This document shows positions 28,546 through 42,056 of a DNA stretch of 64,000 nucleotides, piece after piece. A program made the position numbers and the translations under genes. Location of the stretch: contig CM076949.1 in NCBI GenBank assembly GCA_039566865.1, forward strand, positions 10,951,501-11,015,500. The letters run 5' to 3'. The notes under the pieces are model-generated. The model did no database searches and had not been told where the DNA came from. It was given only the letters and a program-made list of their open reading frames with translations. The stretch comes from Aurelia coerulea (lineage: Eukaryota; Cnidaria; Scyphozoa; Semaeostomeae; Ulmaridae). The number at the start of each line of letters is the position of its first letter. The first letter of the stretch is position 1.

Positions 28546-28576
28546 TATATGTAGTCAAGAAAAACACATTCGAGTA

Positions 28577-28602
28577 AACGTTTCGGCGTAAGCCTTCATC
28601 AG
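28577..28602 (-). ncRNA. PLE hammerhead core, 3' terminal repeat
   Basis: The minus strand has CTGATGA, a short stem II (GGC-TTAC-GCC), then GAAACGTT. Core bases are intact, unlike the copies at 12739 and 28343. Stem III is minimal, which in PLE hammerheads is thought to favour dimeric cleavage. Confidence 0.6.
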
Positions 28603-29520
28603 CAATAGCTTTCCAAATTAGATGGAGCATACATATAAATCTTGAAATAACAATACAATATAAAACAATAGCCTGAGCGGGATCCTGATTATTACAATAA
28701 GTCATAAAAGGTGCAAATAGGGGTGTAGCCAAAGGCGGCAATGGGAAGATCAAAGAAAGCGCAGAGTAAAGAGCTGCTAAAGTCGGCGGCGGTGTCTGTC
28801 TCGCGGAAGCTAGAAAGAAAAAAACGTGTGAACTAACAAAACAAGCAATAGAAAGATCCAAGAGCGGATTGGCAGAAAAGAGATCCCTAAAAAAACAGCG
28901 TGTGTCCCTAATGAAAAGCTGAGCGCAAAAATCAAAACAACCAAACAACCAAAATGTAAACAAAAATCAAATCTATGTATCAACCTGCCTAGTGTTTAAT
29001 CCCTTAGGGGCAAAGCAATCCAGCCGATATTTCCAGAAGCTTTCCCGCATCCTATTTCCCCCCGTTAGCCTATCGATTATCTTAATACTAATATCCTTCA
29101 GAAACCCGTGGTGGCCTTCTCCAGTAAAATGCCTGAAGAATTCCGCCTGGGGTACTGAGGCCCCCGAATTAAACTTATGACTGCACGCCTTGTAATTGTT
29201 AAACATAAGCCTAAAAGGCGTGCAGGTGCTACCAACGTATTGTACACCACAAACAGTACATTCCAACAAATACACAACATTTGACGAGTCACAATTAAAC
29301 GAATAGTTTATCCTATATTCCCGGCTATCTTTGTTTGAATGAAAATGTCCACTATTACTCATGGCATTACACACGTGACAACGAGATTTACCACAACGAG
29401 AACATCCCTTCTTATCAGTCCCCCCATTTCCCTCACTACTGAGCCTAGCCCTAACAAGTATATCCTTAAGGTTCTTACATCTCCTAAATGCTATTAAAGG
29501 TGGCTCAGGAAACACCGCCC

Positions 29521-32500
29521 CACTGTGATCCAGACAGGGAATTAATCCCAAAAAATGAAAATACGAGTATACACTATTTGAGGGTTTCATCATGGTGAAG
29601 AGACATTAAGCTATTCGATACAACAAAAATTTCTTAAATCCGACTCATAAATCCAGAGATATGATTTTTTAAAGTTTGACTAAATTGCGAACTGTTGTTT
29701 ACATTGCAATTTCCGGCCTTTTGTTTGTGTTATCGTTGAAAACCCATACATTCAAGTTCTTGTAACTCTTCAATAAATGCACCGATTTTTTGAAACTTTT
29801 TTTTATTTTACAGATAAACACCTAAGCTATCTAAAAATACAAGGCTATTTGCAAAATCTCAAGTTGGTATATCAATATTTGTCAAAATGGTGTATGACCT
29901 TTTTAAGCACAAAAACCAGGCAAATTATCAAAATTCCGTTTGTTATAGTGAAAAGAAAAAATCTAACTAAATCTAACTCTTCAAAAAAAATATCACAATT
30001 GAATATGATGTCTTGAGAGAATTTCTACCCAAGGATTCGTACAGCTTCGTACAGGAAAAAAAGTTATCACACATTTGGTATGATAGGCCCTTTTGGTTTA
30101 ACGTTGATTTTTTGGCAATGATTTTTGGCTTTGTACATGATTGAACTGTTCCGCATACGAACAGTGTTTATGCAAACTACTTTCAACTATCTTAGCTTTA
30201 CTTGAGTAAAGCTTGTGTCTCTAAAGTATTTAGTTTTTGATTGATAATCTAATTCTCATTGTACATGTCCTTGATAAGGCCTCTTCTCGGTTTAGTGTAT
30301 CGATCACCTCACTTTAATGATAATTGACTGCCTGATCTTGGTCGGCTACGTTTTTTACCTCGTTCATCTACTTCATCGCTGAACACTCTTTCTTTTACAC
30401 GCCTCATCCTTGACTTTAACTTGATACAATTTTTGGAGTACTAATTTAATTTTATATGCGTCTTCCTTCAGCCCCCCTTTCCTCTATCAGTTTATCAGCT
30501 AGATCCTTAAATTTCGCAGTATATTTCATGTTCTACTTCGTACTTTTATCCTTTAAATCACCGTTTTCAACTATGAAATCATAAAGCTCGCCATTCGTTG
30601 TGATAAACGTGATTGATTTTGTGACACGTAGCTATTGGAATGGTTTAAAGACTACAGGCCAGCAGTGTTGTGTTTTAACAGTCATTGTTTTATTTTGTGG
30701 TAGGAACTGACTTGGAAATTAACATAGAAAAAATTCTGCTTCTCAATGAGGCATGTGAAAGATACAGGCTTGGCTTGGGTCAGTCATAGTTACGAGAAAA
30801 TTTTTTTTATTGTTTTGCAGTTTCATATCAGTTTATGTAAAGTTGCGTCATCCTGTAATTTGAGCACTCTCTGCATCCTATGATCCTATATACAATATGG
30901 TGAGCTGTAGACACTCTCTAGACTTATGACGATGAGTCCCTTGTATCCCTGCGGTACCTTGCTCACAGGGACTCATAATGAAACAGTTAAAATCCTGACC
31001 CTATTTTGTAAAGTCTCGCTTTCAGATTGCCTGCCAGAGAGCCCAAACATTTTGCGAAATATTTTTGCAAAACCTCCAAGGACTTGTCTTTTTGTGTGAA
31101 GAACAAAACTCTCTCGCTTATTTCAGGATGTTCGATTAGTTTCCCTAGAGACGCTCTAGAGTCCAAAGTCCACAGCAAGACTTCGCTCGTTGTTTGGGGG
31201 TTGTTTGCAAGTGGTGGACTCGGACATAAAAGCAAAGCAATAAGTTCTAAAAATAAGAAATAAGTTTTCCCTGTTCCTGCAACCAGACACGAAGATATCT
31301 TCACCCTTCAAAACTTTTAAATAAACAGCCTGGAATTAGCACAACTCAACTCCAGAATGTGTTTCTGTTTTCTGCAGAAGCTCCGAATCAACCATCTTGC
31401 ATTTTGTTTGGCGAATAAAGATTGCGAAATCGCTAAATCGCGAAAATTAAAAGATGAACAGCCTCCCTTTGCTACCTGCCCTGCCAGACCTCGCCTGATT
31501 GGCTAAAAGTCCAGCAGATTTGCCGTAACCATGGTAATTCGCAAATCTCGCAAGCTGATTGGTATGCTAGGAATCCCAGCATATTAGGCCTAAATAGGGT
31601 CAGGTTTTTCAGAGTAATAATATGAGTCTCTATTGACCGAAGCGCCATCATCAAGTCAAAGAGCACAGGGAAACAAGAGACTCATCGTCGTAAGTCTAGA
31701 CACTCTCTATGCGTACTATCAAAGTTTAAAAGTTGAATATATATTTTGAAATAACGAGGTAAAGTTGCCTTGCCTTAAACAAAGAGGCATTTAAGGCGAA
31801 TAAGTGAATGGAAAAGTAGTGATAGGGGAATGTAGGCAGTAGTTATGTTCCAATAAAAGTCGCCACAAGCATATCCGGACTATTGACGCCTCTTCCCTAC
31901 CATATCGAAGCCCTTGAAGGCAGTCAGTTAACATTTTCATTGACTATGGAATCAAGATAAAGATAAAAACCGAGTCGACAGACAAGAAGCATGAAAATGT
32001 TATACCAGAACAAGATCTTTATCAACAGTTGGTCGTCAAGGTTTCAGTGAGTACGACAATAACCAAACACAAACTGAAAAGGACCTACCATACCAAATGT
32101 GTGATAACTTTTTTTCCTGTACGAAGCTGTACGAATCCTTTGGCAGAAATTCTCTCAAGACATCATATTCAATTTTAATATTTTTTTCGAAGAGTTAGAT
32201 TTAGTTAGATTTTTTGTTTTCACTATAACAGACGGAATGTTGATAATTTGCCTGGTTTTCGTGCTTAAAAAGGTCATACGCCATTTTGACAAATATTGAT
32301 ATACCAACTTGAGATTTTAAAAAAAGCTTTGTATTTTTAGATAGCTTAGGTGTTTACCTGTAAGACAAAAAAAAGTTTCAAAAAATCGGTGCATTTATTG
32401 AAGAGATACAAGAATTTGAATTTCTGGGTTTTCAACAATACAACAAACAAAAGGCCGGAAATTGCAATGTAAACAACAGTTCGCAATTTAGTCAAATTTT

Positions 32501-32661
32501 AAAAACTCATATCTCTGGATTTATAAGACGGATTTAAGAAATTTTTGTTTTATCGAATAGCTCAATGTCTCTTCGCCATGATGAAACCCTTAAATAGTGT
32601 ATACTCGTATTTTCATTTTTTGGGATTAATTCCACGAATTCTAAAGAGCTGGATCACAGTG
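29521..32661. mobile_element. Transib/RSS-like non-autonomous DNA transposon, 3.1 kb
   Basis: Both ends are CACTGTGATCCAG in inverted orientation, and the 5-bp duplication CGCCC flanks them (29516-29520 and 32662-32666). The PLE reading frame continues across the site. Longer arms, similar but imperfect, extend to about 30095 and 32085 (shared aatgaaaatacgagtataca and cgtacaggaaaaaaagtta). The interior has no transposase ORF. Known Transib and ProtoRAG elements make 5-bp, often GC-rich duplications and start with a CAC-heptamer resembling the V(D)J signal CACAGTG, which this matches. CACTA elements share CACT ends but make 2-3 bp duplications. Confidence 0.65.
30919..31698. mobile_element. 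780-bp element with 33-bp inverted ends, 9-bp target duplication
   Basis: The ends TAGACTTATGACGATGAGTC and (reverse complement) TAGACTTACGACGATGAGTC continue inverted to about 33 bp. GACACTCTC is at 30910-30918 and 31699-31707. It sits within the Transib-like element. No coding potential is recognised. The 9-bp duplication suggests a Mutator-like MITE. Confidence 0.7.
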
Positions 32662-34751
32662 CGCCCTATGCTCCTCCGAGTTTGTGAGCATAGAATGGAG
32701 TCTCCTGGCAACCTTCCCCAAACTATTGAGTGCTGGATGGTATGTTGCAACAAGTGGAACCCTTTCCCCCCTCCCTTGGTTATTGGTCCTATTTCCCGCA
32801 TTTGCTAGAAGAGTTGTCCTATCCAACCTACGTACCCTATCTATTTGTTCGTTGACTAAAGACTCTTCGTAGCCCCTTTCCTTAAGCCATCCAGCTAACT
32901 CGCCTACCCTCTCCTGAAATTGGCGATCTTCCGAGCATATCCTACGAAACCTAAGAGCCTGACCATAGGGGATCGCCTTCTTCGTGTGCCAGGGGTGACA
33001 AGACTTCTTATGCAAGTACTGATGTGTATCAGTTGGCAAGCAAAACAAGTCTGTCGAAAGGACTCCCCCCTCCCCCACGCTAACCTGAACATCTAAAAAA
33101 CTAATCCTATCCCGTGATTGCTCGCTAGTAAACTTAATGGTTTCGTGGCTACTGTTGAGATGATTGATGAAAGACTTCAGCTTTTCCTCCCCGTGCATCC
33201 AGATAAAGAAAACATCATCGATGAATCTCATCCAGATGAGGGGCTTGTCAGGTGAAGCATCCAACAAACTCTCTTCCAACCGGGTCATGAAGAGATTGGC
33301 ATAGGCCGGAGCGAACTTCGTGCCTATAGCCGTGCCCAATTTCTGCCTATAAATCCTATCATTAAATTCAAAATAATTACTCTCCAAGACCAAAGACGCC
33401 AACCCCACTAGGGTATCAGTAGCCACGCCCGGGTTTTCCCTTCTATCCAGCGCCCCCCTGATGGCCTCTAAGCCCTCCCCGTGTGGAATGCTTGGATAGA
33501 GTCCCACAACATCAACTGTACACAACAAAGCCCCCTCTGGTATCCTACCTAGCTTACTTAGCCTAGACAAAAAGTGGTTAGTGTCCTTAACATATGACCT
33601 ACTTTGGCTAACCAACGGGTTAAGGTGGTGGTCTAGATATTCTGAAATATGTTCTGTTATAGTACCACAATTGGAAATGACTGGTCGCCCCTTAACACTA
33701 CTAAGACCCTTGTGGATCTTAGGCAATAAATAAAATCTACCTAACCTAGAATCTTTAATTTCCAAATACTCAGTCACTTCCTCTAGACCGGGGTCCCCCT
33801 CCCTCAGTTCTTTCAACCTAGAATTAATGGTCTTACCCAAATCTACCGTGGGGTCCACCTCTATTTCTTCATAAACCTGCCTATCGTCTAGTTGTCGGTT
33901 AGCCTCACTTATGTAATCCTCCCGATCCCAAACTACAACCGCTGATCCCTTATCCGCCTCCTTGATCACTATGTTCCTATCACATTTAAGCTGTTTCAAA
34001 GAAAGTTGTTCAGAAGAAGAAAGATTACTAAAATTCTTACCCTCCGGCGAGACAGACATTACCTCCTTCTCCAACAGCGAAAAATAGTTCTCCAGAAGTG
34101 GGTCATCCTTGGGGGGCTGCCAAGTGGACTTAACTCTAAATTTATTCTGATCATTGTCCGGTGTAAAATTGTCCTCGTTGTTTCTAAAATGCCACCTCAG
34201 CCTCATTCTTCGTTTGTAAACCTCAAGGTCTTCTTTTAGCTTTGCTTTATCGATGTCAGTGGGAGTGGGGGAAAACTTCAGGCCTTTCGAAAGAAGACTC
34301 ACGTCTTCCTCCGAAAGTTCCCTCCGTGATAGATTCACCACACTCCCACTGACAAATCGTCCCTTTAATCTACCATCTGCCATTACTTGGACTTCCTCAT
34401 CTGGTTCCTCCCTGGTTGTGGTCTGTATCGTCGTCGGATTCTCTTGATGTTGCTCTGCAGGTCGTAGGTCGCTGCTGTCAAATATTTCGTCATGATGGTG
34501 GTTGGTTCCTCTTAGGTCTTGTAGCCTTTCTGTGGAGATCTTAATTCCTGAGTCTGTGCATAATTTCAGCGCCTTTTTTATCCGCTTCCTTTGCAAGGTC
34601 TCCTTGGACGTCTTCACCTCTTCTCTTATATGGTCTAACTCCTCCCTTGTCAGTTCTTGTCGTGATCTGCGTAAATTCGCATACGCTCTGTTACGCGTCC
34701 CTTCCAATTGATCTCGGTACTGGATTAGAAGAAGAGTGAGCAGCTGATCCT

Positions 34752-34989
34752 TAGCCTACGTGTAGACCCCTTATCCAACTGGAGAAAAGGGTCTACGAAT
34801 TAATGAGCGAAAGCTTGCCACTACAGTTCCAGGTTTCTAGAACTTAATTTATGCAGCCTTTGTTTAGATGGGTTTCACACATTATTTGAATAGAGGATTA
34901 ACATAATTAATTGAACAGACGTAGCAAGCGTTATCTCATTATTTCGTAGACCCTCTATTCTGTAGGATAATGGGTCTACTCGTAGGCTA
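34752..34989. mobile_element. hAT-type MITE, 238 bp
   Basis: CTGATCCT flanks the element at 34744-34751 and 34990-34997. Ends TAGCCTACGTGTAGACCC and (reverse complement) TAGCCTACGAGTAGACCC are inverted, and an internal hairpin repeats gggtctac. Removing one target copy restores the PLE frame (AQDQ-LLTLLL). TAGCC ends plus an 8-bp duplication indicate hAT. Confidence 0.85.
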
Positions 34990-35300
34990 CTGATCCTGGG
35001 CAGTAGCAAGAATGTTCTTCCATGTTCCTTCAAAGTCATTCGATGGCTTTCCCAGTAACGACGGTGTTTTCTTCAGGCGAAGTCCGATTGGTATCACATT
35101 GACAGTCTTGCAGAATTCCAAGTAGCATCGATGGTGTTCAAGTTTAATTAAATCATTATATGTATTCAAAATCAATAATGTCCGCTCCATCTAATTATCC
35201 TTTTCTCCTATTCCAAGCAATTAATAAATATATTCTCATAAGCTCATTCGCAATATGTAATAAAAAAGATATATGTAGTCAAGAAAAACACATTCGAGTA

Positions 35301-35326
35301 AACGTTTCGGCGTAAGCCTTCATCAG
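35301..35326 (-). ncRNA. PLE hammerhead core, 5' terminal repeat
   Basis: It is identical in core to the copy at 28577-28602: CTGATGA, GGC-TTAC-GCC, GAAACGTT. It lies about 110 bases upstream of the PLE start codon at 35190, so cleavage would define a short 5' leader. Confidence 0.6.
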
Positions 35327-35680
35327 CAATAGCTTTCCAAATTAGATGGAGCATACATATAAATCTTGAAATAACAATACAATATAAAACAATAGCCTGA
35401 GCGGGATCCTGATTATTACAATAAGTCATAAAAGGTGCAAATAGGGGTGTAGCCAAAGGCGGCAATGGGAAGATCAAAGAAAGCGCAGAGTAAAGAGCTG
35501 CTAAAGTCGGCGGCGGTGTCTGTCTCGCGGAAGCTAGAAAGAAAAAAACGTGTGAACTAACAAAACAAGCAATAGAAAGATCCAAGAGCGGATTGGCAGA
35601 AAAGAGATCCCTAAAAAAACAGCGTGTGTCCCTAATGAAAAGCTGAGCGCAAAAATCAAAACAACCAAACAACCAAAATT

Positions 35681-37275
35681 GGAAGAGAGTTTGTTGGATG
35701 CTTCACCTGACAAGCCCCTCATCTGGATGAGATTCATCGATGATGTTTTCTTTATCTGGATGCACGGGGAGGAAAAGCTGAAGTCTTTCATCAATCATCT
35801 CAACAGTAGCCACGAAACCATTAAGTTTACTAGCGAGCAATCACGGGATAGGATTAGTTTTTTAGATGTTCAGGTTAGCGTGGGGGAGGGGGGAGTCCTT
35901 TCGACAGACTTGTTTTGCAAGCCAACTGATACACATCAGTACTTGCATAAGAAGTCTTGTCACCCCTGGCACACGAAGAAGGCGATCCCCTATGGTCAGG
36001 CTCTTAGGTTTCGTAGGATATGCTCGGAAGATCGCCAATTTCAGGAGAGGGTAGGCGAGTTAGCTGGATGGCTTAAGGAAAGGGGCTACGAAGAGTCTTT
36101 AGTCAACGAACAAATAGATAGGGTACGTAGGTTGGATAGGACAACTCTTCTAGCAAATGCGGGAAATAGGACCAATAACCAAGGGAGGGGGAAAGGGTTC
36201 CACTTGTTGCCACATACCATCCAGCACTCAATAGTTTGGGGAAGGTTGCCAGGAGACTCCATTCTATGCTCACAAACTCGGAGGAGCATAGGGCGGTGTT
36301 TCCTGAGCCACCTTTAATAGCATTTAGGAGATGTAAGAACCTTAAGGATATACTAGTTAGGGCTAGGCTCAGTAGTGAGGGAAATGGGGGGACTGATAAG
36401 AAGGGATGTTCTCGTTGTGGTAAATCTCGTTGTCACGTGTGTAATGCCATGAGTAATAGTGGACATTTTCATTCAAACATAGATAGCCGGGAATATAGGA
36501 TAAACTATTCGTTTAATTGTGACTCGTCAAATGTTGTGTATTTGTTGGAATGTACTGTTTGTGGTGTACAATATGTTGGTAGCACCTGCACGCCTTTTAG
36601 GCTTAGGTTTAACAATTACAAGGCGTGCAGTCATAAGTTTAATTCGGGGGCCTCAGTACCCCAGGCGGAATTCTTCAGGCATTTTACTGGAGAAGGCCAC
36701 CACGGGTTTCTGAAGGATATTAGTATTAAGATAATCGATAGGCTAACGGGGGGAAATAGGATGCGGGAAAGCTTCTGGCAATATCGGCTGGATTGCTTTG
36801 CCCCTAAGGGATTAAACACTAGGCAGGTTGATACATAGATTTGACTTTTGTTTACATTTTGGTTGTTTGGTTGTTTTGATTTTTGCGCTCAGCTTTTCAT
36901 TAGGGACACACGCTGTTTTTTAGGGATCTCTTTTCTGCCAATCCGCTCTTGGATCTTTCTATTGCTTGTTTTGTTAGTTCACACGTTTTTTTCTTTCTAG
37001 CTTCCGCGAGACAGACACCGCCGCCGACTTTAGCAGCTCTTTACTCTGCGCTTTCTTTGATCTTCCCATTGCCGCCTTTGGCTACACCCCTATTTGCACC
37101 TTTTATGACTTATTGTAATAATCAGGATCCCGCTCAGGCTATTGTTTTATATTGTATTGTTATTTCAAGATTTATATGTATGCTCCATCTAATTTGGAAA
37201 GCTATTGCTGATGAAGGCTTACGCCGAAACGTTAACTCGAATGTGTTTTTCTTGACTACATATATATATATATAT
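35681..37275 (+). pseudogene. 5'-truncated Penelope-like copy, inverted relative to the full element
   Basis: It starts abruptly at LEESLLDASPDKP inside the RT (just before WMRFIDDVFFIW) and is open through the linker. A frameshift occurs near 36190 (GRGKGFHLLPHTIQ versus GRGERVPLVATYHP). It then resumes with the zinc cluster CSRCGKSRCHVC, GIY-YIG and LNTRQVDT, ending with the 3' region, hammerhead and (TA)n. It is joined head to head with the terminal repeat at 35680. Confidence 0.85.
37208..37233 (+). ncRNA. PLE hammerhead core
   Basis: CTGATGA, GGC-TTAC-GCC and GAAACGTT are all present with the core intact. It lies at the 3' end of the inverted truncated PLE copy. Confidence 0.6.
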
Positions 37276-37350: not shown

Positions 37351-37447
37351 TCAATATATATATATATATGTCGAAACGAAAAAAGTACAATACGCAAGTA
37401 AAATATATATCGAAACTTATAGAAGGCATTAACAAAAACAACACTCG

Positions 37448-37497
37448 TTTCTTTGGCGACTAGTTTCGTCTGTTCATGCAGACTCTTCAGGCTAAAA
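37448..37497 (-). ncRNA. hammerhead ribozyme, complete (inverted copy)
   Basis: On the minus strand: TTTTAGC (stem I), CTGAAGA, stem II GTCTG-CATGAA-CAGAC with five perfect pairs, GAAAC, TA, GTC (cleavage triplet), then GCCAAAG, which pairs with TTTTAGC except one A/C mismatch. All conserved core bases are present. This is the best-formed hammerhead in the window. Confidence 0.75.
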
Positions 37498-37560
37498 TGA
37501 TTAATTTACAGTGGCAACAGAGTTTATGTTTATGGTTCTTATTCATATGGTGTAAGATTT

Positions 37561-38222
37561 CTAATTATATTTATCTGACGTAAGATTCAATTTCCGTCTG
37601 GCTTTAGTTAATTTAGTTAACTTTATAGGCATAGGAATTTTAGTTCTAGGGTTTGCTTTAATGTCCGTTTCCTTAAACCTGGATACTGTGTTATTATCAT
37701 TTCTGTTACAGTTATAGTTATTGGTAGTAGCTCCAAGGACTTTCTCAAGTCGGTCTATTTCTGCGCCAATTCTTTCAAGTGCTGATTTATCAAAAAATTC
37801 GCCATATTCTTCAGCGTGCATCATTTTTTCAAATTCTTGTATGTATTTGGATTCAAGCTCTCTAATGTTGCTTATGGTATCATTAGGGCAAATATCGTAT
37901 TTCTTTTCTTTACATGGGTGTTCTGTGACAGCCATCTTTTTTGACGCTGTTTCTGTAACCATGCGGTTCTCTTTATCTAGCTTCTCTATCACTAAATCAG
38001 GAGGTATTTTGAATGTACGCATTTTCGACTTCATTTTTGTTTCATTCACTTGCCAAATTTGAATAGATTTAACTTCTTCCTTTTCACATTCTGTTTTCCA
38101 TTTGTTTTTAATCGACTGCATTTTGAGAGGATACTCACCATACTTCATCTCGATTAGGTTATCAATTTTATCGTCAATTGTCTTGATTCTCTTTTCGTAG
38201 GTATTTCTTTTTGACTCTAATT
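37561..38222 (-). pseudogene. inverted partial copy of the 378-residue protein gene
   Basis: The frame encodes the C-terminal part from about SKRNTYEKRIKTIDDK onward and is almost identical to the full copy at 38478-39614 (for example Y for N in AEENGEF and I for T in NDTTSN). It is truncated at 38222, where it meets the plus-strand repeat head to head. Confidence 0.8.
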
Positions 38223-38224
38223 AC

Positions 38225-38477
38225 TAAAATTCCTATGCCTATAAAGTTAACTAAAATTAACTAGAACTAAAATTCCTATGCCTATAAAGTTAACTAAATT
38301 AACTAAAGCCAGACGGAAATTGAATCTTACGTCAAAGAGTCTGCATGAACAGACGAAACTAGTCGACAAAGAAACGAGTGTTGTTTTTGTTAATGCCTTC
38401 TTTAAGTTTCGATATATATTTTACTTGCGTATTGTACTTCTTTCGTTTCGACATATACCTCTCCTTACGCATAAGAG
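38225..38477 (+). repeat. 5' terminal repeat with broken hammerhead
   Basis: This holds the last codons of the ORF (a short KIPMPIKLTKLTKA segment, duplicated at the junction), then jumps from cttacgtca to aagagtctgcatg. Compared with the 3' end, about 80 bases, including the CTG of the hammerhead core, are deleted. GAAAC-TA-GTC and stem II remain at 38334-38367. A leader of about 110 bases leads to the start codon. Confidence 0.7.
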
Positions 38478-39614
38478 ATGGCAGAAAGCAAACAACAGAA
38501 AGGTTTTGAAGACCAAGAAGATGAAACAAGATTTCAGTCAGGTCAAGCATCCTTTATTCTCGTCGTTATAAGACAAATCAGAGAGACAGCAACTGTCTTA
38601 TCAGAAAGCATCATAACAGAAGAAATTGATTTGGCAGGAAACATAGTGAAAATGTCTAGAATCCTTGAAGATTACGTCCAGTGTGGCCAAACAAGAGCTA
38701 CGACCAAAGAACAGAAACCATTAGACTATTCAAAGATCATACGAAAGATGAAGAAGAAGAGAAAGCTAGCCTATTACCACTTTTTTAAGAACAAGAGAAT
38801 TACCGAGATTTACAAGGAAAGTTATAATAAAAATAAAAATGAAATAAAAGTACCAAAGCACCTAGTTCCGAGGCATCGTCCAGAAGAAACGAAACAAGAG
38901 TTTCAACTACGAACAAAACACGCGAGACAAAAGTTAAAGCAAGAAATGGAATTATCAGAGTCAAAAAGAAATACCTACGAAAAGAGAATCAAGACAATTG
39001 ACGATAAAATTGATAACCTAATCGAGATGAAGTATGGTGAGTATCCTCTCAAAATGCAGTCGATTAAAAACAAATGGAAAACAGAATGTGAAAAGGAAGA
39101 AGTTAAATCTATTCAAATTTGGCAAGTGAATGAAACAAAAATGAAGTCGAAAATGCGTACATTCAAAATACCCCCTGATTTAGTGATAGAGAAGCTAGAT
39201 AAAGAGAACCGCATGGTTACAGAAACAGCGTCAAAAAAGATGGCTGTCACAGAGCACCCATGTAAAGAAAAGAAATACGATATTTGCCCTAATGATACCA
39301 CAAGCAACATTAGAGAGCTTGAATCCAAATACATACAAGAATTTGAGAAAATGATGCACGCTGAAGAAAATGGCGAATTTTTTGATAAATCTGCACTTGA
39401 AAGAATTGGCGCAGAAATAGACCGACTTGAGAAAGTCCTTGGAGCTACTACCAATAACTATAACTGTAACAGAAATGATAATAACACAGTATCCAGGTTT
39501 AAGGAAACGGACATTAAAGCAAACCCTAGAACTAAAATTCCTATGCCTATAAAGTTAACTAAGTTAACTAAAGCCAGACGGAAATTGAATCTTACGTCAG
39601 ATAAATATAATTAG
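38478..39614 (+). CDS. 378-residue basic, charged protein of hammerhead-flanked element
   Basis: I do not recognise a family. The intact frame starts in a good context (gagATGg). Residues 1-40 are acidic and polar; 90-180 are strongly basic (RKMKKKRKLAYYHFFKNKR; KVPKHLVPRHRPEETKQEF) with helix- and coiled-coil-like spacing to about 200. The middle (KIPPDLVIEKLDKENRMV) and a CPNDTTSN segment precede another charged helix (ERIGAEIDRLEKVLG) and a basic tail (KLTKARRKLNLTS). There are no RT palm residues, no GIY-YIG and no zinc knuckle. The HRPEETKQ... region might be distantly related to PLE N-terminal domains, which also combine basic and coiled-coil character (weak inference). RNA binding or packaging of the hammerhead RNA is a hypothesis only. 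Confidence 0.7.
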   Translation: MAESKQQKGFEDQEDETRFQSGQASFILVVIRQIRETATVLSESIITEEIDLAGNIVKMSRILEDYVQCGQTRATTKEQKPLDYSKIIRKMKKKRKLAYYHFFKNKRITEIYKESYNKNKNEIKVPKHLVPRHRPEETKQEFQLRTKHARQKLKQEMELSESKRNTYEKRIKTIDDKIDNLIEMKYGEYPLKMQSIKNKWKTECEKEEVKSIQIWQVNETKMKSKMRTFKIPPDLVIEKLDKENRMVTETASKKMAVTEHPCKEKKYDICPNDTTSNIRELESKYIQEFEKMMHAEENGEFFDKSALERIGAEIDRLEKVLGATTNNYNCNRNDNNTVSRFKETDIKANPRTKIPMPIKLTKLTKARRKLNLTSDKYN

Positions 39615-39676
39615 AAATCTTACACCATATGAATAAGAACCATAAACATAAACTCTGTTGCCACTGTAAATTAATC

Positions 39677-39727
39677 ATTTTAGCCTGAAGAGTCTGCATG
39701 AACAGACGAAACTAGTCGACAAAGAAA
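39677..39727 (+). ncRNA. hammerhead ribozyme, 3' terminal repeat
   Basis: CTGAAGA (39685-39691), stem II GTCTG/CAGAC around loop CATGAA, GAAAC, TA, GTC (ending 39717). Cleavage is predicted after 39717. Stem I (TTTTAGC/GACAAAG) is weaker than in the inverted copy, with two mismatches. Confidence 0.7.
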
Positions 39728-39761
39728 CGAGTGTTGTTTTTGTTAATGCCTTCTATAAGTT

Positions 39762-39770
<9 letters not shown>

Positions 39771-39810
<40 letters not shown>
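39771..39810. repeat. (TA)n tract
   Basis: Nearly uninterrupted TA repeat at the end of the hammerhead element, also the target of the next MITE. Confidence 0.9.
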
Positions 39811-39811
<1 letters not shown>

Positions 39812-40023
39812 CCGGGTGTCCCAAAATGATGTATTATCGTATGATTGCCTATATGTCCATGACCGATGAACCGATTTTCAAAATCTGGTAAAACCACAAC
39901 CAACATCTTAACATCCAATTTAGCCTTTAGGCAATCAAACAAAACAAAATTTTTGAAAATCTGTTCATTGCTTATGGACATACAAGCAAGAAAACAATAA
40001 TACATCATTTTGGGACACCCAGT
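39811..40023. mobile_element. mariner-like MITE, 213 bp, in (TA)n
   Basis: The ends ACCGGGTGTCCCAAAATGAT and (reverse complement) ACTGGGTGTCCCAAAATGAT are inverted, and similarity continues inward (tatgtccat...gattttcaaaa), giving a long hairpin. It is flanked by TA on both sides. TA target and GGGTGTCCCAAAA ends are characteristic of the Tc1/mariner/IS630 group. Confidence 0.75.
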
Positions 40024-42056
40024 ATATATATATATATTCATCAAAAACTTAAATAGAAAATGAAAATAAAAATTTAAAGCCAGCTTTCCTTGAATCTAAT
40101 CAATTATGAGCTTTTGAGCTTGGTTTTAAATGATTGGATGGAAGGGGCTAATTTAATATCAGAATCAGAATGGAGTTTGTTCCATGTATCAGCTCCGCGG
40201 AAAGCAAACGACTTTTGGCCATAAGCTGTTCTCATTCGAGGTATGGCTAGATCCAACTCAGTGTTGCGTAACACCCGATTGTGAACATCAGATCATCGGG
40301 AGAAAATCTGACAAAGGCTGTCGGGTGCAAGTCCATTTAGGGACTTATATACCATGGTAGATGTTTCTCTGTTGACTAGCCTGTCAACTGAAAGCCATCC
40401 TAATCTTTGAAACAAAGGAGCAGCCGATGAATCCAAAGGGCTGCTCGTGACAATTCTTGCAGCTCTGTTCTGCAAATTTCGCAAGGTATTCAACTTGGTA
40501 TTGCCACAGCATCCCCACACTGAGCAACAATAGCTCAAATTAGGCTCAACAATACTTAAATACATGTTTCTTAGGGTATCTTCTTGGACAAATTGTTTGG
40601 CATATTTCAAAAGCCCGAGGGCTCGTGAGACTTTCCTTTGAAGAAACTTTGTCTGGCTTCCCCATTTCAAATTGTCATCAATCATTACACCAAGATATTT
40701 CGTTTCATGAACAAGATCGATATCATTCCCATTAACTTGAAAGCAAGGGGTGATTTCTGACGTTTTGTTTATCTTCCCCAGCTTTTGGGCTGAACCAATT
40801 ATCATGGCTTGTGTTTTGACGACATTCAAGGAAAGCTTATTGCCCTGCAACCATTTCTCAAGGCAGGCAAGTTCTGCATTGACAACAACGTCAATCTCTT
40901 CAATTCTATCCGAAGAGAAGGAGATCGCTGTATCGTCTGCGTACATTGTCGCTTGTGCCTTTTTAAAGCGAAAGGAAGGTCATTTATATAAAGTAAAAAT
41001 AAGAGAGGTCCAAGGCAAGATCCTTGTGGTACCCCTATATTAAATAATTTCTACTGTATCGGATGTGACACCGTTGACTTTGCAGCACTGCCTGCGATTG
41101 TTGAGATAAGAGCTGAACCATTGATGTTCGAGACTATCAATCCCGTAATGGTGCATTTTTCAAGGAGAATTTGATGGTCTACTGTGTCAAAGGCTTTCTC
41201 TAAATCAATGGAAATCATCGCAGTATATTTACCCCAGTCTATATTGAAGAACCAATCATTGGTACATTTAAGCAAACAGGAAACAACCGAATGTAAATGT
41301 CGAAAGCCATACTGATCTGAGTACAGATGTTTATTAGAATCGAGGTACTTGTAACCCAACCAAACCACACCTTAAGATTGGTTCCGAGGATATCAAGTTG
41401 GTAAAGGAGGTCAAATACCTTGGTGTTCAGGTTGACCATCAACTTAAATGGACATCTCAATTGGCCCTAACAACTAATAAGATCTCTAGAGGTATTGGTG
41501 TGCTTCGTTATGCCAAGCAGTACCTTCCTATTTCAACTGTCAAGACAATGTATAAGAGTTTAGTGGAGCCTTACTTTAGATATTGCTGTCCTGTCTGGGG
41601 AAATGCTGGGGTGACTGCCATTGAAAAATTGTAGAAACTTAAAATCGGGCTGCAAAACTCGTCTCCAACAGTCCATTTGATGCTACTGCTTTACCAGTTG
41701 TTCGGGCGCTTAAATGGCCGACTGTCAGGGAGCTTATTGATTTTGAAGCTCAGAAAATGGTCTTTAAATCCCTTAATGGGGACGTGCCTTCTTATATGAA
41801 AGACATGTTCACGAGAGTCAACAACTCTACCAGTCGTTCTCTTAGAAACGCCGAAGTCAATCTCAGGTTGCCATTATTAAAATCGGCAGGGGGGCAGAAA
41901 TGTTTCGCGTACCGAGGCGCCAAGCTTTGGAACAGTCTTGGCCCTGAGATCCGAAATACTTCAACCCTGAGAGCGTTTAAAAAGAAGGTGCAACCATGAA
42001 TTTCTCACCAATTCTTTTCTGTTTTCTTTTATTTATTCATGACAATCTGTAATTAG

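What the first reader, a model, noticed from the sequence alone, without database searches (positions are those of the whole stretch)
37365..39770. Penelope-architecture element with hammerhead repeats but a single non-RT ORF
The inverted partial copy, head-to-head junction, terminal repeats with hammerheads, ORF start about 110 bases after the ribozyme, and TA-tract ends all reproduce the layout of the PLE next door (28546-37275). Yet the only ORF is a 378-residue basic, helical protein with no RT palm and no GIY-YIG. Known animal retrozymes with hammerheads are small and non-coding, and known PLEs encode RT. A protein-coding, hammerhead-bounded, non-RT element would be a new kind of PLE satellite, possibly encoding an RNA-binding partner moved in trans.
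Basis: partly seen in the sequence, partly recalled or inferred. Interest (0 to 1): 0.88.

Follow-up and report, generated by a model that had tools for sequence, protein, structure and literature searches.

The report
Ribozyme-framed satellite of Penelope retroelements
A probably jellyfish genome carries a family of small mobile elements, framed by hammerhead-ribozyme-like sequences, that encode a relative of only the first protein of a larger two-gene Penelope-type element in the same genome and so would likely be copied by that larger element's reverse transcriptase.

Summary
Window 37365-39772 is one copy of a multi-copy, about 1,353-bp element: hammerhead-like motif, one 378-codon ORF, hammerhead-like motif, TA tract. 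All 13 full-length ORF matches at 97-100% identity are open. Older subfamilies (about 75%, 44-50% and 36% amino-acid identity) keep open frames, the hammerhead core and the ends. Between subfamilies dN/dS is 0.26-0.32 where it can be computed.

The partner is not the PLE next door. The protein is a homologue (profile-profile E 5.6e-18) of ORF1 of other PLEs in this genome, where ORF1 (347 aa) is followed by an RT/GIY-YIG ORF2. These two-ORF PLEs carry the same hammerhead core and TTTCG-TATAT ends. Of 24 ORF2 N-termini found, 20 directly follow an ORF1; of 74 satellite ORFs none is followed by one of them. Satellite and PLE ORF1 proteins lie on opposite sides of one branch (100/100).

Best reading: an ORF1-only PLE satellite, the PLE counterpart of HAL1 for L1, and a protein-coding relative of animal retrozymes. 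Hammerhead cleavage, circular RNA, RNA binding and trans-mobilisation are inferred, not shown.

The parts
37365..38232 (-). inverted, 5'-truncated second copy of the element, head-to-head with the main copy
   Evidence: inverted repeats I1 and I11; carries ORF residues 161-378
37458..37490 (-). complete hammerhead-like core (CTGAAGA, 5-bp stem II, GAAAC-TA-GTC) of the inverted copy
37564..38217 (-). ORF fragment in the inverted copy (residues 161-378, 99% identical)
38223..38334 (+). junction made of two short copies of the ORF 3' end (38223-38255, 38261-38334), a template-jump-like scar
   Evidence: direct repeats D8 and D10
38335..38457 (+). 5' terminal repeat; its hammerhead lacks the CTG of the core in this copy
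   Evidence: D7, I11
38478..39614 (+). 378-codon ORF: basic (pI 9.45), predicted mostly helical; homologue of ORF1 of two-ORF PLEs
39685..39717 (+). complete 3' hammerhead-like core
39688..39772 (+). 3' terminal repeat, ending at TTTCGATATATAT
   Evidence: D7
39765..39811 (.). TA-rich tract at the 3' insertion junction

Best explanation
This is one copy of an ORF1-only satellite of two-ORF Penelope-like elements: a roughly 1,353-bp unit framed by hammerhead-like sequences that encodes a homologue of the PLE's first protein but no reverse transcriptase, and that would likely be copied in trans by the PLE's second protein. Shown: the unit structure, its tandem and inverted copies, homology of its protein to ORF1 of PLEs in the same genome, shared hammerhead core and shared ends, absence of RT, and constraint on the protein. 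Inferred: transcripts of tandem copies cut themselves at the hammerheads, probably as dimers because stem III is the 6-nt palindrome ACUAGU; the unit-length RNA may be ligated into a circle; the ORF1-like protein coats or marks its own RNA; and the PLE ORF2 RT-endonuclease nicks TA tracts, primes on the UAUAU end and may go round a multimeric or circular template, leaving identical tandem units and an inverted partial copy.
For: Satellite alignment against PLE ORF1 alignment: hhalign probability 99.0, E 5.6e-18, 196 columns. Predicted helices come in the same order and similar lengths in both proteins: 23-41, 47-117, 139-186, 190-224 against 27-52, 58-134, 154-200, 204-239. 20 of 24 ORF2 N-termini follow an ORF1 with a near-constant 55-61-nt overlap of the matches; 0 of 74 satellite ORF matches do. 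The full core CTGANGA ... GAAACTAGTH is present in 66 of 71 satellite and 5 of 9 PLE model matches in held loci. The PLE has the same 5' layout: hammerhead remnant, about 120 nt, ATG (L053). 40 of 48 satellite 3' ends (38 of them right after TTTCG) and 9 of 9 PLE 3' ends run into TA tracts of 10 nt or more. dN/dS F0 against F1 is 0.26 (0.18-0.38) and 0.28 (0.20-0.39). 13 of 13 full-length F0 matches have no stop. Units within an array differ by 0-2 bases, units of different loci by 9-31 (C2 against C3: 3-5). Satellites and PLE ORF1 are split by one branch, 100/100, and database proteins fall beside F0, F2b and F3. [quoted passage not shown] pLTRs sufficed to move a host gene in trans in a rotifer (PMC3846280, passages).
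Against: No transcript, cleavage or circle was seen. The hammerhead is sub-threshold in Rfam, stem I has only 2 contiguous pairs, and stem II covariation rests on few changes (1 two-sided change in 13 distinct rows; 36 of 500 shuffles reach it). The 14 sequences aligned had been picked with a pattern that demands the core, so their invariant core is partly by selection; 4 of 9 PLE and 5 of 71 satellite matches have a changed core. The 5' hammerhead of this copy is broken. dS is near saturation for the F2 pairs and saturated for the two F3 pairs. Recent copies give dN/dS from 0.18 to 1.01 with wide intervals. RT lineages were only partly sampled (93 of 1,846 candidates scored). The tree is unrooted and the program warns of long branches meeting. 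In L021/L022 and L048 satellite sequence abuts PLE RT sequence; in L048 an open frame crosses from the terminal repeat into RT, but behind the satellite's stop and hammerhead.
Confidence: 0.75

Rival explanations
1. An ordinary PLE that recently lost ORF2 by internal deletion; the ORF is a decaying remnant.
For: The protein is an ORF1 homologue and the ends match two-ORF PLEs; PLEs are often truncated.
Against: Satellites group apart from PLE ORF1 (one branch, 100/100) and are only about 20-29% identical to it; several subfamilies have open frames; dN/dS 0.26-0.32 between subfamilies; 0 of 74 followed by ORF2.
Confidence: 0.08
2. A helper rather than a parasite: the satellite supplies ORF1 protein in trans to PLEs that lack a working ORF1, a split two-segment element.
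For: 4 of 24 ORF2 N-termini had no listed ORF1 C-terminus beside them; shared hammerhead and ends would let one RT move both; TART needs HeT-A Gag in Drosophila (PMC5537684, passages).
Against: 20 of 24 ORF2 copies have their own ORF1; at one of the four exceptions a diverged ORF1 match lies just upstream (C1:14920332).
Confidence: 0.12
3. An integrated delta-like or Obelisk-like circular RNA replicon: about 1.4 kb, ribozyme, one basic helical protein.
For: Size, single basic helical protein, ribozyme-like motif, and a database contig of 1,519 bp for a 1,489-bp unit.
Against: No rod-like fold in either strand of the two units tested (circular MFE z between -0.6 and +1.2 against 12 shuffles each) and no hammerhead core on their antisense strands; clear PLE ORF1 homology and PLE ends.
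Confidence: 0.02
4. A host gene captured between PLE terminal repeats.
For: Such capture is described in a rotifer (PMC3846280, passages).
Against: Homology of the ORF to PLE ORF1, multicopy, no introns in the ORF, no Pfam family above its cut-off for P0001.
Confidence: 0.02

Closest known systems
HAL1 (half-L1), and HeT-A: ORF1/Gag-only retroelements
   Same: encode only the first protein and no RT; HAL1 is a non-autonomous derivative of L1 that encodes only ORF1p (PMC5753468, passages); HeT-A encodes no RT (PMC5537684, passages)
   Different: those are non-LTR (LINE-type) elements; this one has PLE-type ends, tandem units and hammerhead-like motifs
Animal non-LTR retrozymes
   Same: type I-like hammerhead in the unit, head-to-tail tandem units, co-existence with PLEs (PMC7229834, passages; PMC7761336, passages)
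   Different: known ones are about 150-450 bp and described as having no protein-coding region; the units here are 1,347-1,489 bp and code for 378-402 aa under constraint
Penelope-like elements (GIY-YIG type)
   Same: pseudo-LTRs, inverted 5' partial copy, tandem units, hammerhead in the repeat, AT-rich targets
   Different: no RT and no endonuclease; canonical PLEs have one ORF (PMC11167929, passages), and even the relatives here have ORF1 separate from ORF2
Neighbouring PLE at 28546-37275
   Same: same overall layout
   Different: different terminal repeats, and no homology of its 688-aa RT ORF to the satellite ORF or to PLE ORF1

Membership tests
Penelope-like element (autonomous) | RT domain | tested here: not met
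   no RVT_1 in the ORF
Penelope-like element (autonomous) | GIY-YIG endonuclease (where present) | tested here: not met
Penelope-like element (autonomous) | pseudo-LTR arrangement: tandem plus inverted partial copy | tested here: met
Animal retrozyme | hammerhead core in the tandem units | tested here: met
   full core in 66 of 71 satellite matches; tandem spacing
Animal retrozyme | small non-coding unit | tested here: not met
   1,347-1,489 bp, constrained ORF
Animal retrozyme | self-cleavage and circular RNA | not testable with these tools
   no transcript data; one database contig length fits a closed 1,489-bp unit, which a genomic tandem would also give
ORF1-only (HAL1-type) satellite of a two-ORF element | encodes a homologue of the parent's ORF1 and nothing of ORF2 | tested here: met
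ORF1-only (HAL1-type) satellite of a two-ORF element | shares cis-acting ends with the parent | tested here: met
ORF1-only (HAL1-type) satellite of a two-ORF element | mobilised in trans by the parent's RT | not testable with these tools
   needs a retrotransposition assay
Hammerhead ribozyme type I | conserved core, stem II, stem III, stem I | tested here: inconclusive
   core present and stem II paired; stem III is a 6-nt palindrome; stem I weak; Rfam 16.4 of 34 bits
Delta-like circular RNA | rod-like self-complementarity and ribozymes on both strands | tested here: not met
   two units, both strands

The most novel reading that the evidence does not exclude
The genome holds a three-tier ribozyme-linked consortium: two-ORF PLEs that supply RT, ORF1-only coding satellites that package or mark their own RNA, and 0.8-0.95-kb retrozyme-like repeats that carry just the hammerhead. 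All share the palindromic stem III ACUAGU, so hammerheads of different tiers could pair and cut each other and feed one RT. The coding satellite would be the missing link that makes PLEs the engine of animal retrozymes.
Probability: 0.35. Interest if true: 0.85.

Novelty: new variant of a known kind. Interest (0 to 1): 0.74.

Why it matters
Which enzyme moves animal retrozymes is open: two papers propose PLEs from co-occurrence and shared hammerhead type (PMC7229834, passages; [quoted passage not shown] Here an intermediate element shares the hammerhead core, the ends and a homologous protein with one class of PLE in the same genome, so the question becomes testable with one donor and one helper. 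It also shows that some PLEs have a separate ORF1 whose homologue stays under constraint in the satellites across several subfamilies, and suggests that PLEs have evolved ORF1-only satellites as LINEs did.

Tried and rejected
Homology to the neighbouring PLE: none. Pfam and PDB by sequence for the satellite and ORF1 proteins: for those shown with their cut-offs only matches below them; for the other members of the alignment only weak scattered matches, best E 0.0015, cut-offs not shown; none in PDB. AlphaFold models of the satellite protein (mean pLDDT 67.7, pTM 0.41) and of PLE ORF1 (67.4, 0.48) are helical with disordered tails; Foldseek of the first against PDB gave 180 matches at E 10 or better, 0 of them at 0.001 or better, and the best hits are generic coiled coils, so no fold claim is made beyond the shared helix order; the second model was not searched. 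Delta-like rod: rejected. The contig-length argument for circles works for one subfamily (1,489 + 30 = 1,519; that the source 'lgn' is Logan and assembles at k = 31 is recalled) and could not be checked for the other (1,365 bp). Both proteins are close to this genome's own copies (P0018 0 differences of 384 to L052, P0019 6 of 402 to L051), so they may come from the same species. P0033, a database protein labelled Seg942.3/GoldUCD, matches a PLE ORF1 of this genome at 69 of 70 aligned residues; I recall that label as Aurelia (moon jelly), and the one paper search for it settled nothing. TR-GAG elements are recalled only.

Literature: seven searches on this question (listings with starts of abstracts only, three of them cut: 20 of 25, 25 of 36 and 10 of 18 papers) showed no title or abstract start describing a coding retrozyme or an ORF1-only PLE. 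The library lacks most subscription papers and the PLE-hammerhead paper of 2014, so absence in print is not shown.

Rows left out: 14 of 93 model matches were in the hammerhead alignment (matches). In some searches satellite and 9 PLE matches were classified; 1 cut-off match (L053) and 12 weak matches, mostly other repeats, were dropped. dN/dS used 12 coding sequences and 13 of 66 possible pairs. The tree used 23 proteins; fragments and near-duplicates were left out. In one search the coordinates were typed by hand: 74 of 126, 34 of 105 and 24 of 94 rows.

Full report
Observation. The main copy runs from the 5' repeat (38335) to 39772; a 5'-truncated inverted copy lies head-to-head in front (inverted arms of 830 nt, 98% complementary; direct repeats of 85 nt, 99%). 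The single ORF, 38478-39614, codes for 378 aa, pI 9.45, predicted mostly helical at moderate confidence, without RT or GIY-YIG matches. Complete hammerhead-like cores lie at 39685-39717 (+) and 37458-37490 (-). The 5' direct repeat of this copy has lost part of the core. By Rfam the 3' motif is Hammerhead_1 below threshold (16.4 of 34 bits).

Copies. A DNA search of the genome that holds the window (574 Mb, 294 contigs) gave 53 matches, and a protein search 126; both are lower bounds. All 13 full-length matches at 97-100% amino-acid identity have no stop; seven of these lie in two arrays, so they stand for 8 loci. Other subfamilies lie at about 75%, 44-50% and 36% identity, and the members used here have open frames of 379-402 codons. 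Units repeat head to tail with spacings of 1,353 bp in F0 (1,352 and 1,357 once each), 1,373-1,399 in F1, 1,347 and 1,361 in F2 and 1,489 in F3. In the C12 array the four full units have 0 mismatches to each other (one has 4 extra bases), yet 10-23 to units elsewhere; in the C3 array 0-2 against 3-31. Each array therefore came from one template, as expected from copying a multimeric or circular RNA, or was homogenised; this step is inference.

Constraint. NG86 dN/dS between F0 and F1 is 0.26 (bootstrap 0.18-0.38) and 0.28 (0.20-0.39). F0-F2, F0-F2b, F2-F2b and F1-F2 give 0.29-0.32, with dS near saturation; the two pairs with F3 are saturated. Close F1 copies give 1.01 (0.43-2.69), as expected for dead insertions, and close F0 copies 0.18-0.47 with wide intervals. 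So selection acted on the source elements rather than on each copy (inference).

What the protein is. Matching the ORF against held loci led to a second family: a 347-aa protein with an RG-rich tail. Profile against profile, satellite and this family match with probability 99.0 and E 5.6e-18 over 196 columns, 20% identity, and the predicted helices come in the same order with similar lengths. The same test against the neighbouring PLE fails. The second family is ORF1 of PLEs: of 34 matches that reach its C-terminus and 24 matches to an ORF2 N-terminus, 20 pair up on the same strand with an overlap of 55-61 nt. 14 ORF1 matches found no such partner among the rows scored. A representative ORF2 fragment (L023) carries RVT_1 above cut-off and GIY-YIG just below it (20.6 of 22.6 bits); 13 rows list a 794-aa open frame, 10 of them with one TAA inside the match. 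In one copy read directly, the ORF2 frame opens 60 nt before ORF1 ends. None of 74 satellite ORF matches reaching residue 370 is followed by one of the 24 ORF2 N-termini, with the caveat that only 93 of 1,846 RT candidates were scored.

Shared cis elements. PLE copies in L012, L014 and L023 (group X) and L015 (group Y) carry after ORF2 the same core. L053 shows the matching hammerhead remnant, cut by the end of the fetched stretch, about 120 nt upstream of PLE ORF1. Over the 80 model matches so classified in held loci the full core is present in 66 of 71 satellite and 5 of 9 PLE cases; the rest have changes in the core, mostly of one base. Satellites end at two alternative TTTCG-TATAT places about 41 nt apart, group X PLEs at two about 39 nt apart, and the three group Y matches at one. 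TA tracts of 10 nt or more follow 40 of 48 satellite ends, 38 of them right after TTTCG, and 9 of 9 PLE ends. Stem II keeps pairing through changes (group Y changes U-A to C-G; F3 shifts its last pair), but the count is small: 1 two-sided change, 36 of 500 shuffles as high.

Age and spread. The protein database holds satellite relatives in other sequence sets at 33-85% identity besides closer ones, and PLE ORF1 relatives. A tree of 23 proteins puts 17 satellites and 6 PLE ORF1 proteins on opposite sides of one branch with 100/100 support; it is unrooted and long branches meet, as the program warns. Database proteins fall beside F0, F2b and F3 of this genome, so the subfamilies are likely older than the split of some of the sequenced sources, although P0018 and P0019 are so close to this genome's copies (0 of 384 and 6 of 402 differences) that they may be from the same species. 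The longest contig that holds P0019 is 1,519 bp, 30 more than the 1,489-bp unit, the length expected for a closed cycle at k = 31 (recalled); a genomic tandem would look the same.

Mechanism. Shown: structure, homology, shared ends, constraint, absence of RT. Inferred from print and anatomy: hammerhead cleavage of tandem transcripts, perhaps as dimers, as reported for vertebrate retrozymes (PMC7229834, passages); ligation by a host RNA ligase; binding of the RNA by the ORF1-like protein; RT and nicking by PLE ORF2 at AT-rich DNA, as shown in vitro for a lizard PLE (PMC11167929, passages). Trans-mobilisation by pLTRs has a precedent (PMC3846280, passages).

Comparison. It works like HAL1 (ORF1-only L1 derivative; PMC5753468, passages) and is built like a retrozyme, but it fails the defining features of an autonomous PLE (RT) and of a known animal retrozyme (small, non-coding). 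I therefore file it as a new variant: an ORF1-only, hammerhead-framed PLE satellite.

Noticed in passing
L014 4715-6672 (-), L011 77-1755 (+), L039 1302-2326 and 3847-3904 (-): Other repeats carry hammerhead-like motifs with the same ACTAGT stem III but different stem II (GCCC/GGGC, GACC/GGTC), in L014 and L011 as tandems with spacings of 807-953 bp: probably retrozyme-like repeats. Those of L014 hold open frames of 262-264 aa of unknown worth.
   Followed up: partly
L026 4240-4420: The 3' end of one satellite is joined to an inverted satellite end through five TTAGGG telomere-type repeats.
   Followed up: no
G000 C1:17.04-17.30 Mb, C2:17.23-17.32 Mb, C15:10.67-10.72 Mb: Satellite and PLE matches cluster in narrow mid-chromosome stretches, possibly pericentromeric.
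   Followed up: no
window 39797-40037: A short element with 87-nt inverted arms (CCGGGTGTCCCAAAA...) sits next to the TA tract; the same end sequence flanks the satellite in L038.
   Followed up: no
G000 C1:17105189 and C1:17296597: A 365-aa open frame is 27-28% identical to both the satellite protein and PLE ORF1; it may be an intermediate family. Its DNA could not be fetched.
   Followed up: no
L021 / L022 (C1:17.28 and 17.09 Mb): Two loci share near-identical stretches with a PLE RT fragment fused to a truncated satellite, a likely segmental duplication.
   Followed up: partly
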